From: a bacterium
GTDB taxonomy: Bacteria > Patescibacteriota > Minisyncoccia > UBA6257 > GWB1-50-10
DNA length: 52,868 bases
Direction of reading: 5' to 3'
Assembly (NCBI GenBank): GCA_027310365.1
Contig: DAIDAY010000004.1
Span: 1 to 52,868 of the forward strand
Below are positions 6,842-52,868 of the stretch, piece by piece (position 1 is the stretch's first letter; each line of letters starts with the position of its first letter). A program made the position numbers and the translations under genes. The notes beneath the pieces were generated by a model. That model ran no database searches. It saw only the letters and a list, made by a program, of their open reading frames with translations, and had not been told where the DNA came from.

Positions 6842-7428
6842 CGTTCCTTCCGGCTCCCCAAGATTTTGAGCGCGCGTTTCAATCTCTCTTCGAGAGAATC
6901 TCCGGCGCCGTTCTTCAACTGCGAGAGAATCTCCTTAACGAGCTGCTTTTCATATCCTAATCCATGGAGCGCTTCTTCGACTTCCACGTTGATTTCGGCC
7001 GCTCCATCAAGCCCCTTCACATCCGCGGCATCGATCCTGTTCTGCAAATCCAAGATGATCCGCTCGGCGGTTTTTCTTCCGACGCCCGGCGCGCGGCTTA
7101 AAACATCAGCCTTCTTCCCCGCGATCGCGGCCATGACGTTCGGGAATGAATCCAGGTCGAGGACCGCCAAGGCAGTTTTGGGGCCCACGCCCGAAACGGA
7201 TATCAGCATTTCAAAAAATCCCAGCTCCCCCTCATCCAAAAAGCCGTAAAGCTCCATGGCGTCCTCTTTGACGTGCATATGGCAATACACATGCACCGGC
7301 TCATTCCCCTTCGGCAATTTATAAACCGTCTGCTTGTTTGAAAACACCTTGAAGCCGACACCCGAAACATCAACCACAAAAAAATTTTCCTTTCTCCCCG
7401 CGATCGCCCCGGACAGAGTGTAAATCAT
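6838..7428 (-). CDS. ruvA: Holliday junction DNA helicase RuvA
   Basis: MIYTLSGAIAGRKENFFVVDVSGVGFKV...LISVSGVGPKTALAVL...APGVGRKTAERIILDL. Confidence 0.92.
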   Translation of the reverse strand: MIYTLSGAIAGRKENFFVVDVSGVGFKVFSNKQTVYKLPKGNEPVHVYCHMHVKEDAMELYGFLDEGELGFFEMLISVSGVGPKTALAVLDLDSFPNVMAAIAGKKADVLSRAPGVGRKTAERIILDLQNRIDAADVKGLDGAAEINVEVEEALHGLGYEKQLVKEILSQLKNGAGDSLEERLKRALKILGSRKER

Positions 7429-7460
7429 TACCGATATTATAGCTCCACCACGAACATCAA

Positions 7461-7555
7461 GCGAGCCAAACATTCTCGCGAAGACTAAGACTTGGGCGCC
7501 TGCCTGCGCAGGAAGGCAGCCCCCGAGGCAGCCTGAGTGAGAGTGTTTGGCGAGC
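7461..7555. repeat. ~95-bp imperfect palindrome with nested GC-rich hairpins
   Basis: GCGAGCCAAACATTCTC (7461-7477) vs GAGAGTGTTTGGCGAGC (7539-7555); inner CTGCCT...AGGCAG hairpin. Confidence 0.55.
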
Positions 7556-7561
7556 AATTCA

Positions 7562-7590
7562 TTGACAGACCCTCTTTAAAAAGGTAGTAT
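7562..7590 (+). promoter_or_regulatory. sigma-70-type promoter for rpsT
   Basis: TTGACA (7562-7567), 17-nt spacer, TAGTAT (7585-7590). Confidence 0.75.
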
Positions 7591-7603
7591 GTCTCATACT
7601 TCT

Positions 7604-7876
7604 ATGCCCATTACCACATCAGCCAAGAAGGCCCTGAGGCAAAACACGCGGAGACATGCCTTGAATCTTTCCCGCAAGAAAGACATGCGGACCGCAATCA
7701 ATGCGTTTAAAAAGCTTGTGGAGGCCGGCAAAATCGATGAAGCGAAAAAAACTCTCCCCGCCATCTATAAAACGCTCGACAAAATGGCGAAGGTTGAATT
7801 TATCAAGAGGGGTAAAGCAAGCCGTTTGAAATCGCGCCTGACTAAACGCTTAGGTGCTTTCCAAAACAAAACCTAG
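7604..7876 (+). CDS. rpsT: 30S ribosomal protein S20
   Basis: MPITTSAKKALRQNTRRHALNLSRKKDMRTAINAFKKLV; track start at 7589 lies in the -10 box so 7604 is preferred. Confidence 0.88.
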   Translation: MPITTSAKKALRQNTRRHALNLSRKKDMRTAINAFKKLVEAGKIDEAKKTLPAIYKTLDKMAKVEFIKRGKASRLKSRLTKRLGAFQNKT

Positions 7877-50190: not shown

Positions 50191-51075
50191 ATGACGGAAA
50201 TTGAAAAGTATCTCAAGGAATATTTGGATTACCTTGAAGTAGAAAAAAATCGGTCGCGGAAAACGCGCGAAAACTACGCACGATACTTGAAGTTATTCGT
50301 AAAACAAACGGGCGTTCAATCTCCCTTTGCCATCGACGACGATATCGTCCGGAGCTTCCGACTCGACTTGAATCGTCGGGGAATCAAAAAAATCACGCAA
50401 GGGTATTACGTGATTGCGCTCAGGAATTTCTTGAAGTACTTGATCAAGAGGAAGCTGAAGGTCCTCCCTCCCGACACCATCGAACTTCCCCGCGTGAGCC
50501 GGGCGGACATTGAAGTTTTGGGATACGAGGAACTTGAACGGCTTCTCTCCGCCCCGAAGGGCGGCGATCTCCGGTCGCTCCGCGACAAAGCGATTTTGGA
50601 AACCCTCTTTTCGACGGGCGTGAGGCTCTCGGAACTTTGCAATCTTTCGCGGTTCGTTGATTTGAAGCGCGGCGAGATTTCTGTGCGCGGAAAGGGAGAC
50701 AAAATACGCGTCGTTTTTCTTTCGAATACGGCAAAAGACGCCATACGCGATTATATGAAGAGGCGGCAGGATGCCTGGGAGCCGCTTTTTGTAAGTTTGG
50801 ATAAGAAGGGAAGGGTTATGGGAAGAATTACGCCCCGGAGCGTCGAGCGCTTGGTTTCGTTCTATGCCCGGAAAGCCGGCATACCGAAGAAGGTGCACCC
50901 TCATGAATTGCGCCATTCGTTCGCGACCGATCTCCTGGTGAATGGCGCCGACCTCCGTTCGGTCCAGGCGCTCTTGGGTCACGCGAATATCTCGACGACG
51001 CAAATCTATACCCACCTCACCAACAAGGAGTTGCGCGAGGTGCACGAAGCCTTCCACGGCAAACGAAGGAGATGA
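50191..51075 (+). CDS. tyrosine recombinase XerC/XerD-like
   Basis: LFSTGVRLSELCNL, VRGKGDKIRVV, HPHELRHSFATDLLVNGADLRSVQALLGHANISTTQIYTHLTNKELREV. Confidence 0.95.
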   Translation: MTEIEKYLKEYLDYLEVEKNRSRKTRENYARYLKLFVKQTGVQSPFAIDDDIVRSFRLDLNRRGIKKITQGYYVIALRNFLKYLIKRKLKVLPPDTIELPRVSRADIEVLGYEELERLLSAPKGGDLRSLRDKAILETLFSTGVRLSELCNLSRFVDLKRGEISVRGKGDKIRVVFLSNTAKDAIRDYMKRRQDAWEPLFVSLDKKGRVMGRITPRSVERLVSFYARKAGIPKKVHPHELRHSFATDLLVNGADLRSVQALLGHANISTTQIYTHLTNKELREVHEAFHGKRRR

Positions 51076-51094
51076 GAGTAAGAATTTTCCTCGG

Positions 51095-51140
51095 GCACAA
51101 GAAGAACTATGATAACTAGACGATCGTCTAGAAAATGTAA
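51095..51140. repeat. left copy of ~45-bp palindromic direct repeat flanking the Cas2/PaaX-like gene
   Basis: GCACAAGAAGAACTATGATAACTAGACGATCGTCTAGAAAATGTAA; core CTAGACGATCGTCTAG (51116-51131) is a perfect 16-bp palindrome. Confidence 0.7.
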
Positions 51141-51184
51141 GTTTTGTGGCATAGGGTGTATAATAGTGGTGTATCTACGAAAAA

Positions 51185-51790
51185 ATGGCGAGGGGGAACA
51201 TTTCGTTGAGTATTTTAGAGGTGTTAAAAGACGCAGCCGTTGGCAGTCTCGATCTTTTTGAGGCTTTTCTGGCTGCTGGCTACGGTGCTTCGCCGCGCAG
51301 GGTAGGTTACGAACTGTCGAAGATAGAAGAAAAAAGATTATCCAGGGAACAGAGAGCGAGATTGAGGCAAAAATACTGCAATCTTATTTCTCAGTTAAAG
51401 AGAGATGGGCTTATTCAAGTGAAGGAAAACAGCCGTTCGAAAATTTTTGCTCTCACCCCCAGAGGGAAGAAGAAGATGAAGGAGTTAAGATTAAAAATCG
51501 AGCGGGAAGCGCCTCGACCGGATGGATATCAAAAAGAGAAAGGAAATCTTACCATCGTCGCCTTTGATGTGCCAGAAAAGCATAAAACAAAAAGAAACTG
51601 GATAAGAGAGGTTTTGAAAAATCTGGATTTCAAAATGATCCAAAAAAGTGTTTGGTTCGGCAGAGTGAAAATCCCGCGGCAATTCATCGATGATTTAGGA
51701 AGATTTGATATGATCGACTTTGTTGAAGTATTTGAAATAAGCAAAGCTGGTAGCCTGAAACGGGTTGGCCAGCAATTCCACATTATCTAA
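51185..51790 (+). CDS. winged-helix + Cas2/PaaX-C-like ferredoxin-fold protein
   Basis: N-terminal wHTH (YCNLISQLKRDGLIQVKENSRSKIFALTPRGKKKM); C-terminal GNLTIVAFDVPEKHKTKRNWIREVLKNLDFKMIQKSVWFGRVKIP. Confidence 0.75.
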   Translation: MARGNISLSILEVLKDAAVGSLDLFEAFLAAGYGASPRRVGYELSKIEEKRLSREQRARLRQKYCNLISQLKRDGLIQVKENSRSKIFALTPRGKKKMKELRLKIEREAPRPDGYQKEKGNLTIVAFDVPEKHKTKRNWIREVLKNLDFKMIQKSVWFGRVKIPRQFIDDLGRFDMIDFVEVFEISKAGSLKRVGQQFHII

Positions 51791-51794
51791 ATAA

Positions 51795-51839
51795 GCGCGA
51801 GGAAACTACGTTAAGTAAACGATCGCATAGTTAATGTAA
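51795..51839. repeat. right copy of ~45-bp palindromic direct repeat
   Basis: GCGCGAGGAAACTACGTTAAGTAAACGATCGCATAGTTAATGTAA; shares ACGATCG..TAG...ATGTAA and the upstream GC.C.AG.A..ACTA pattern with the left copy. Confidence 0.65.
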
Positions 51840-51841
51840 AT

Positions 51842-52252
51842 TCACGATTGCTTGTTCAATATGCTGGTGTGGTATTTTTCCGGCTCATGAGGTTCGAGCC
51901 TGACCACATTCGGTACCGGATTGAATTCGCGGAGGCATGACGACAGACTTACGCCGAGATCCTTCTGGTCGTATCCGAGTGCGATGACATCGGGGCGCTC
52001 GCTTTTCGCCGATTGCCACGTTCCCAGAATCTCGTCCCCCGCGATAACTTTGTTCACGTAATCTTCTTTTTCAAGGCGATTCTTTCGTTCTTCAAAATCG
52101 AGCCGGGGCTTCCGGCTCTTCAGTTTTTCTACGGTTACATCCCGCGCCAAAACGATCACCAGTTCGTCGCCGAGTTGCTTCGCTTGCTTCAAAAACTCGC
52201 GATGCCCTTCATGGACCCCGTCGAAGACCCCAAAAACCAAAACTTTTTTCAT
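51842..52252 (-). CDS. cytidylyltransferase-like (nucleotidyltransferase, FAD synthase/TagD type)
   Basis: MKKVLVFGVFDGVHEGHREFLKQAKQLGDELVIVLARD...RPDVIALGYDQ. Confidence 0.85.
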   Translation of the reverse strand: MKKVLVFGVFDGVHEGHREFLKQAKQLGDELVIVLARDVTVEKLKSRKPRLDFEERKNRLEKEDYVNKVIAGDEILGTWQSAKSERPDVIALGYDQKDLGVSLSSCLREFNPVPNVVRLEPHEPEKYHTSILNKQS

Positions 52253-52269
52253 ATCGTTCAAATTTCCTG

Positions 52270-52352
52270 TGGGCAGGGAGGGATTTGAACCCTCACGCCT
52301 TTGCGGCGCGGGCTCCTAAAGCCCGTGCGTCTGCCGGTTTCGCCACCTGCCC
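52270..52352 (-). tRNA. tRNA-Leu (anticodon UAG)
   Basis: GGGCAGG TGGCGAAACCGGCAGACGCA CGGGC TTTAGGA GCCCG CGCCGCAAAGGCGT GAGGG TTCAAAT CCCTC CCTGCCC A; long variable arm. Confidence 0.93.
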
Positions 52353-52382
52353 ATAGCCCACATTTTACCAGATATTTTGTAT

Positions 52383-52411
52383 TTGACAAATAGATAAAAA
52401 TGTTGTAGTAT
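52383..52411 (+). promoter_or_regulatory. promoter
   Basis: TTGACA - 17 nt - TAGTAT. Confidence 0.7.
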
Positions 52412-52508
52412 TTGCTTAGATTTACTGTCAAAAAGCTCTCTGTTCTGAGAGCTCATACCGGGCAAAAGAGTTTTCTGAACAATCAATAAAATAGAAAGGA
52501 GAAGTAAG

Positions 52509-52868
52509 ATGCTTCTCAAAAACAAGGGAAAGAAAGCCGTCGAAGAAGATCTTGGCGATCTGCTTGGTGGCTTAAATCCAGAACTTCAAAAGTTTGCTGA
52601 TCTGTTGGCGAGTTTCATGCCAGCCGACAGCTTCCTCAGAAGTGAAGGTGCAGATAGGTTGTGGGGAATACTCAGTGATTCCGTTGAACGACGGGCCGAT
52701 TCACTACCGTTTCCATGGAGTAGAGTCATAGAAAAAGGTAGTGATCTTATCGAATTTCTCTCTAGGAGTTTACGAGAAGGCAAAAGTACATCTTCTACGC
52801 TCTCAAGGCTCAACTGGCAAGAGAATTTCTTTAAGCAGGCTCAAGATCGGCTAGCTAAAGCTCAAGAT
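52509..52868 (+). CDS. unknown protein, 5' portion, runs off window end (not in track)
   Basis: AAAGGAGAAG Shine-Dalgarno; MLLKNKGKKAVEEDLGDLLGGLNPELQKFADLLASFMPADSFLRSEGADRLWG... open through base 52868. Confidence 0.65.
   Translation, partial: MLLKNKGKKAVEEDLGDLLGGLNPELQKFADLLASFMPADSFLRSEGADRLWGILSDSVERRADSLPFPWSRVIEKGSDLIEFLSRSLREGKSTSSTLSRLNWQENFFKQAQDRLAKAQD

What the first reader, a model, noticed from the sequence alone, without database searches (positions are those of the whole stretch)
51095..51839. Solo Cas2/PaaX-like gene bracketed by two palindromic ~45-bp direct repeats, next to a XerC/D recombinase
Left copy GCACAAGAAGAACTATGATAACTAGACGATCGTCTAGAAAATGTAA and right copy GCGCGAGGAAACTACGTTAAGTAAACGATCGCATAGTTAATGTAA align over their full length and both centre on CGATCG. 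The left core CTAGACGATCGTCTAG is a perfect palindrome; the right copy has outer arms TACGTTAA/TTAATGTA. The left copy sits just upstream of a TATAAT, the right copy starts 5 nt after the stop codon. Inference: either an autoregulatory operator pair or the ends of a small mobile/recombination unit, possibly dif-like sites used by the adjacent tyrosine recombinase. No CRISPR array or cas1 is present.
Basis: partly seen in the sequence, partly recalled or inferred. Interest (0 to 1): 0.72.

Follow-up and report, generated by a model that had tools for sequence, protein, structure and literature searches.

The report
Palindrome-ended, Cas2-like gene: REP-like element
The gene is one worn copy of a large, apparently undescribed family of one-gene units in tiny symbiotic-type bacteria (Patescibacteria): a DNA-binding protein with a Cas2-like domain that sits between two copies of its own hairpin-forming palindrome, with extra gene-less copies of that palindrome scattered in some of the same genomes, as if a CRISPR-related protein fold had been used to run a minimal mobile element.

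Summary
The window gene (51185-51790) encodes a winged-helix protein with a Cas2/PaaX_M-like domain and lies between two degenerate palindromes that match each other (27/35; 0 of 1000 shuffles reach the pair score). Relatives show what this is. Of 114 homologs from one order of Patescibacteria, 91 pass a strict test for two 36-44 bp near-perfect palindromes, one in the promoter and one just after the stop. The arms are alike within a unit and differ between units. In a complete 984-kb genome the two Cas2-like genes are the two most palindrome-flanked of 652 genes. Some genomes also carry gene-less copies of exactly their own unit's palindrome (up to 6), absent at the matching sites of sister species. 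Units lie at different sites and in both orientations; in-genome pairs are homologous only from palindrome to palindrome; one sister species has a single palindrome where another has palindrome-gene-palindrome. Units and REP/RAYT elements occupy the same intergenic sites. It works like a REP/RAYT system built on a Cas2-like protein. The Xer/dif link is not supported (xerC is a core gene beside 11 of 114 units). Movement as a unit is well supported; that the Cas2-like protein performs it is inferred.

The parts
51106..51140 (.). Upstream (promoter-side) terminal palindrome, degenerate in this copy; perfect core CTAGACGATCGTCTAG at 51116-51131 centred on CGATCG
   Evidence: pair score, null; only two copies in the genome; homologous position to the palindromes of 91 of 114 homologs
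51159..51164 (+). TATAAT, probable -10 box of the gene; in many relatives the -10 lies inside or just beyond the right arm of the palindrome
   Evidence: exact TATAAT within 50 nt right of the upstream palindrome in 25/91 units versus 3/91 for the downstream palindrome
51185..51790 (+). Single gene of the unit: 201-aa winged-helix plus Cas2-like (PaaX_M-like) protein; intact ORF with all family-invariant residues (G94, D128, E131, R137, S155)
51335..51505 (+). PadR/MarR-type winged helix (residues about 51-107), presumed palindrome-reading part
   Evidence: AlphaFold2 model pLDDT 84.7; Foldseek and HMM matches to PadR/MarR proteins, weak E-values
51536..51763 (+). Cas2-like domain (residues about 118-193) with FD[IV]PE ... 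R..R ... QKSVW motif; the Cas2-type aspartate D128 is invariant in 98 sequences
51805..51839 (.).
   Evidence: same position in relatives (median 52 nt from stop to palindrome centre)

Best explanation
The window holds an old, partly decayed copy of a one-gene element that works like a REP/RAYT system. A winged-helix/Cas2-like protein recognises the outer arms of its own long palindrome. Bound at the upstream copy it probably shuts off its own promoter. The palindrome-gene-palindrome unit, and the palindrome alone, have spread to new intergenic sites. Recombination between the two palindromes can delete the gene and leave a solo palindrome, and because the ends are symmetrical a unit can sit in either orientation. 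Shown by sequence: the unit and its ends, co-variation of the two ends, occurrence at different sites, both orientations, solo copies and their absence in sisters. Inferred: binding, autorepression, and that the Cas2-like protein (possibly cutting an extruded hairpin at the central CGRYCG) does the moving.
For: (1) 91 of 114 distinct homologs have matched palindromes on both sides under a strict test; mean identity of the two ends within a unit 33.2/38 versus 16.7/38 between units. (2) In a complete 984,447-bp contig (G227) the two Cas2-like genes score 74 and 69, first and second of 652 genes, and are the only ones with high palindromicity on both sides; its 7 long CGRYCG palindromes fall into exactly two families, one per Cas2 gene, with 1 and 2 solo copies; a Markov-resampled genome gives none. 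(3) Solo copies: 6 of 8 in G177, 5 of 7 in G178, none of either in six other related genomes; all intergenic, in convergent, tandem and divergent gaps; absent at matching sites of sisters. (4) Within-genome copies: G039 72% over 779 bp and G209 80% over 676 bp, homology bounded by the palindromes while flanks are unrelated. (5) Single palindrome at the xerC-tRNA-Leu site in G024, palindromes with the same outer arms around the gene there in G025. (6) Both orientations at five shared intergenic sites. (7) G229 has the unit where G228 and G227 have a Y1 (RAYT-type) transposase with its own palindromes; solo copies sit beside REP-type palindromes. (8) Changes between the two ends are compensated within each palindrome 77 times versus about 9 expected, pointing to pairing as hairpin or cruciform. 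(9) D128, E131 and S155 invariant in 98 sequences.
Against: No exact before/after insertion pair at high identity was obtained: sister species differ by 10-25%, so target-site duplication and exact ends are unresolved. No very recent (over 95%) copies of a unit at two sites were seen. Many units stay at the same site across genera, so movement is not frequent. Cas2-fold proteins are not known transposases. Compensated changes could also come from template switching in palindromes. The gene's closest named family (PaaX) is a transcription regulator. 23 of 114 homologs failed the strict pair test, about five of them because a flank was cut short.
Confidence: 0.62

Rival explanations
1. A PaaX-like autorepressor with operators. 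The protein is only a transcription regulator; the upstream palindrome is its operator, and the downstream and dispersed copies are further operators of a small regulon or nucleoid-binding sites.
For: The upstream copy overlaps the promoter; wHTH plus PaaX_M domains; weak structural resemblance to E. coli PaaX 8a39; one solo copy lies just upstream of the rnpB promoter in G177 and some lie in divergent gaps.
Against: A second copy behind the gene in nearly all homologs is not needed for repression; solo copies also lie between convergent genes and after terminators, are identical over 38 bp and are missing at the same sites in sisters; units occur at unrelated sites with homology ending at the palindromes; up to 12 units per genome.
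Confidence: 0.22
2. A passive unit moved by host functions. The gene and its palindromes are mobilised by another enzyme (for example co-resident RAYT/Y1 transposases) or by homologous recombination; the Cas2-like protein only regulates or protects the palindromes.
For: RAYT elements with their own palindromes occupy the same site in sister genomes and lie beside solo copies; 40-bp identical ends may be enough for host recombination (inference).
Against: Palindrome families match one-to-one with the Cas2-like genes in the complete genome; RAYT palindromes differ in length, sequence and centre; the Cas2-type residues are invariant, which suggests more than DNA binding.
Confidence: 0.13
3. dif-like sites used by the neighbouring Xer recombinase.
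For: The gene adjoins xerC in the window and in 10 other units; palindromic sites about dif-sized.
Against: 103 of 114 units are not beside xerC; xerC is a core gene also where no unit exists; arm sequences differ completely between units, even two in one genome.
Confidence: 0.02
4. Solo CRISPR adaptation gene left from a lost CRISPR-Cas locus.
For: Cas2 profile matches.
Against: N-terminal winged helix absent from Cas2, better match to PaaX_M than to Cas2, no array or cas1 in the neighbourhood examined, multi-copy palindrome-flanked arrangement in about half of the genomes of the order.
Confidence: 0.01

Closest known systems
REP sequences and RAYTs (TnpA-REP, Y1 tyrosine transposases; REPINs/REPtrons)
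   Same: A single gene flanked by palindromes; dispersed gene-less copies of the palindrome in intergenic spaces; one gene to one palindrome family; the same intergenic sites.
   Different: Protein is wHTH plus Cas2-like, with no Y1_Tnp/HUH domain; palindromes are 36-44 bp, near-perfect, centred on CGRYCG (or other C....G centres), without the GTAG or CGTC end tag described in PMC3733652; few solo copies (1-6).
PaaX family transcription regulators
   Same: wHTH followed by a Cas2-like middle domain (PF20803).
   Different: About 200 aa versus 279 (TIGR02277) to 305 (8a39); TIGR02277 score 17 against a cut-off of 265; no catabolic operon; terminal palindromes, multi-copy and solo copies.
Cas2 (CRISPR adaptation)
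   Same: Ferredoxin-like domain with FD.P ... R..R ... QKSVW motif and the Cas2-type aspartate.
   Different: Fused to a winged helix; no cas1 or array nearby; a one-gene unit with palindromic ends.
IS200/IS605 family
   Same: Single-gene element with hairpin-forming ends.
   Different: No HUH transposase; ends are symmetric and not strand-specific.
dif/Xer-exploiting elements (IMEX)
   Same: Palindromic site at the ends of a small element, next to xerC in some genomes.
   Different: Arms are unit-specific, several unrelated kinds coexist in one genome, and most units lie away from xerC.

Membership tests
REP/RAYT | Y1 (HUH) tyrosine transposase domain | tested here: not met
   Window protein matches PaaX_M and Cas2, not Y1_Tnp; the RAYT at the equivalent site in G228 does match Y1_Tnp (1e-9)
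REP/RAYT | Gene flanked by palindromes | tested here: met
   91/114 homologs; degenerate but significant in the window
REP/RAYT | Dispersed gene-less copies of the same palindrome | tested here: met
   G177, G178, G227, G229, G176; not in the window's own genome
REP/RAYT | GTAG or CGTC tag at one end of the repeat | tested here: not met
   Palindromes are symmetric with central CGRYCG (181 of 182 cores); definition from PMC3733652
PaaX regulator | Full-length PaaX (wHTH, Cas2-like middle, C-terminal domain) | tested here: not met
   201 aa; TIGR02277 17 bits against cut-off 265
PaaX regulator | Binds an operator and represses | not testable with these tools
   Promoter overlap only
CRISPR Cas2 | Encoded with cas1 and an array | tested here: not met
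   Neighbours are xerC, DUF218 protein, nucleotidyltransferase, tRNA-Leu; no array in 50500-52868
CRISPR Cas2 | Cas2 fold with conserved aspartate | tested here: met
   (fold match weak: E 0.13, probability 0.95)
dif / Xer site | Common sequence recognised by the host Xer enzyme | tested here: not met
   Arms differ between units and within one genome
Transposable element | Same unit at unrelated sites, boundaries at the ends | tested here: met
   G039 and G209 pairs
Transposable element | Exact empty site or target duplication | tested here: inconclusive
   Sites empty or single-palindrome in sisters, but divergence hides exact junctions

The most novel reading that the evidence does not exclude
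The winged-helix/Cas2-like protein is itself a new kind of DNA-mobilising enzyme that acts on palindromic DNA folded as a hairpin or cruciform (cutting at the central CGRYCG), making this a transposase class unrelated to all known ones, and a plausible cellular or mobile-element source for the Cas2 of CRISPR adaptation.
Probability: 0.3. Interest if true: 0.96.

Novelty: categorically new. Interest (0 to 1): 0.86.

Why it matters
If right, Patescibacteria carry a widespread class of minimal mobile elements (129 of 244 genomes of one order at E<=1e-12, up to 12 copies, with related palindrome-flanked genes elsewhere in the phylum) that has been hidden behind the annotation 'Cas2' or 'PaaX regulator'. 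It would add a second, unrelated protein solution to the REP/RAYT way of life, give a testable setting for what a Cas2 fold does outside CRISPR, and bear on where Cas2 came from. The one-protein-to-one-palindrome pairing in a single genome is also a natural set of orthogonal DNA-binding specificities.

Tried and rejected
Orphan copies in the window's own genome: none; the BLAST hits on contigs C7 and C20 are a chance terminator and a coding stretch. Link to XerC: rejected. Solo palindromes as a promoter regulon: disfavoured by convergent and terminator-side positions. Exact insertion sites from sister species: flanks align but intergenic junctions have diverged too far. Literature: no paper found on PaaX plus Cas2 plus palindromes, nor on such elements in CPR; the library is open-access PMC only.

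Full report
WHAT IS IN THE WINDOW. The window is contig C44 of a 747-kb Patescibacteria assembly; the closest named relative is a Candidatus Wolfebacteria contig (L038, 51% protein identity). The ORF at 51185-51790 has a winged helix and a Cas2-like domain (PaaX_M 5e-10, CRISPR_Cas2 1e-6). The two repeats are real: 27/35 identical, each a degenerate palindrome centred on CGATCG, pair score 52 against a maximum of 44 in 1000 resamplings. They are the only two such sequences in the assembly at up to 3 mismatches.

THE SAME ARCHITECTURE IN RELATIVES. A family-wide search gave 36 matches in 21 of 42 genomes, with 0 to 6 copies per genome at E<=1e-10. Their flanks show long near-perfect palindromes before and after nearly every gene, for example L010 CAAATTCGCTCCTAACTCACGATCGTGAGTTAGGAGCGAATTTG and TTTCGCTCCTAACTCACGATCGTGAGTTAGGAGCGAAA. 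Order-wide, 129 of 244 genomes have homologs, up to 12 copies each. Of 114 distinct homologs collected, 91 pass a strict matched-pair test; about five of the failures have a truncated flank, others have one clear palindrome. Within a unit the two ends share 33.2 of 38 positions on average; between units 16.7. The central six bases are CGATCG, CGGTCG, CGGCCG or CGACCG in 181 of 182 cases. More distant relatives elsewhere in the phylum (51 of 380 sampled genomes at E<=1e-20, a stricter threshold than the order-wide search), and further paralogs including the two in the window's own genome (L002, L003), mostly also have matched palindromes, some with other centres such as CCATGG, CTATAG, CATATG, CAATTG; I count 43 of about 59 scoring at least 52, where the maximum of 150 unrelated pairings is 47.

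CONTROL. In the complete 984-kb contig of G227, the same pair score was computed for 652 genes. The two Cas2-like genes rank first and second (74 and 69) and are the only ones with high palindromicity on both sides; other high scorers are plain direct repeats.

SOLO PALINDROMES. The G227 contig holds seven long CGRYCG-centred palindromes (besides one terminator-like hairpin with a different centre). They form two families, one per Cas2-like gene: two flanking plus one solo, and two flanking plus two solo; a Markov-resampled genome of that size gives none above threshold. G177 has eight copies of its unit's palindrome, six of them without a gene, and G178 seven, five without a gene; neither family occurs in the six other related genomes searched. 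G229 has two solo copies of its second unit's palindrome. All solos in G177 and G178 are intergenic; several follow terminators, some lie between convergent genes, one lies just upstream of the rnpB promoter. At the syntenic places of sister species they are missing (G178/G179, G176/G175). One G175/G176 solo is shared.

MOVEMENT. In G039 two units at unrelated places are 72% identical over 779 bp, from the first palindrome to the last, with unrelated flanks; in G209 two units are 80% identical over 676 bp beginning at the upstream palindrome; in G078 another pair is 80% identical over the gene. Five intergenic sites, including xerC/tRNA-Leu and a recurrent site between neighbour clusters c3 and c1, hold units in both orientations in different genomes. 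At the xerC/tRNA-Leu site G005, G037, G003 and G004 have no unit. There G024 has one palindrome, ACTAACTTATCTGACGATCGTCAGATAAGTTAGT, whereas its sister G025 has palindromes with the same outer arms on the contig ends that carry xerC and the gene. At the place of the second G229 unit, G226 has a Cas2-like unit while G228 and G227 have a Y1 transposase ORF of RAYT type (PF01797, 1e-9) flanked by its own shorter palindromes. Solo copies in G229 sit next to a solo of the other Cas2 family and next to a REP-type palindrome. The two kinds of system therefore share the same niches. Movement is not rapid: no pair above 95% was seen, and many units are in the same place in related species.

WHAT THE PALINDROMES SAY ABOUT MECHANISM. 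Comparing the two ends of each unit, positions 2-3 from the centre never vary, positions 9 and 11-16 rarely vary, and positions 4-8 and 10 often do. Where both arms change, pairing is kept in 77 cases, against about 9 expected if arms changed independently. Positions that tolerate change but stay paired are what a functional hairpin or cruciform would show; template switching during replication could give the same picture. The stable outer positions are the natural specificity determinants. The upstream palindrome overlaps the promoter: an exact TATAAT lies within 50 nt to its right in 25 of 91 units, against 3 of 91 for the downstream copy; autorepression is the simple inference. The protein model has a winged helix and a Cas2-like domain (pLDDT 84.7); structure matches are to PadR proteins, E. 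coli PaaX (8a39) and Cas2 (6jhz), all with weak E-values. The Cas2-type aspartate D128, R137 and S155 are invariant in 98 sequences.

INTERPRETATION. Best supported is a one-gene element whose protein reads its own palindrome, with solo palindromes as its non-autonomous or left-over copies, i.e. the way of life of REP/RAYT with an unrelated protein. Shown: unit, boundaries, spread, solos, both orientations. Inferred: binding, repression, and catalysis by the Cas2-like protein. The chief rival is a plain regulator with operators; it does not explain the copy behind the gene, the identical 38-bp solos in convergent gaps, their absence in sisters, or units bounded at the palindromes. The Xer/dif idea fails because most units are far from xerC and arms are unit-specific.

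MEMBERSHIP. It is not a RAYT (no Y1 domain, no GTAG or CGTC end tag; PMC3733652), not a full PaaX regulator, not a CRISPR adaptation gene, and not a dif element. The window copy itself is decayed at its ends, has no solo companions and may now be immobile or retained only as a regulator, although its ORF is intact.

LIMITS. The label 'categorically new' rests on the failed membership tests and on not finding a description in that library; the enzymology is untested.

Noticed in passing
L282 (G228:C1 about 301600-302700) and G227:C1 about 102600-104300: RAYT-type Y1 transposase flanked by palindromes ATGTACGTCATCAGATGACGTACAT, at the same site where G229 and G226 carry the Cas2-like unit; RAYT/REP systems in Patescibacteria seem little described.
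   Followed up: partly
L103 about 7380-7640 (G229), also L101 9180-9350 (G227): A tRNA-Leu gene appears interrupted by an insertion that itself carries a second tRNA-Leu-like gene, next to the Cas2-like unit.
   Followed up: no
L044 (G025:C54 end): The contig folds back into its own reverse complement for about 40 bp beyond the palindrome, probably an assembly artefact at the long palindrome; such units may break or corrupt MAG contigs.
   Followed up: no
L002 (G000:C2:2983-3291) and L003 (G000:C22:455-754): The window's genome has two more distant PaaX_M/Cas2-like genes, also with matched palindromic repeats but other centres (CCATGG; an asymmetric centre in L002).
   Followed up: partly
L191 (G177:C3:30138-30175): A solo palindrome lies directly upstream of the -35 box of the apparent RNase P RNA gene.
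   Followed up: no
L362 9402 and L363 3072 (G228:C1 about 9402 and 23072): Two palindromes share outer arms (TGTCCAAA) with the G228 unit but have different, still paired inner arms (AGGACGATCGTCCT), a further case of compensated change.
   Followed up: no
L126 1340, L111 1027, L147 7182 and other loci: Other long perfect palindromes with non-CGRYCG centres (CTGCAG, GTTAAC, CTTAAG) occur near units and may belong to other palindrome families.
   Followed up: no
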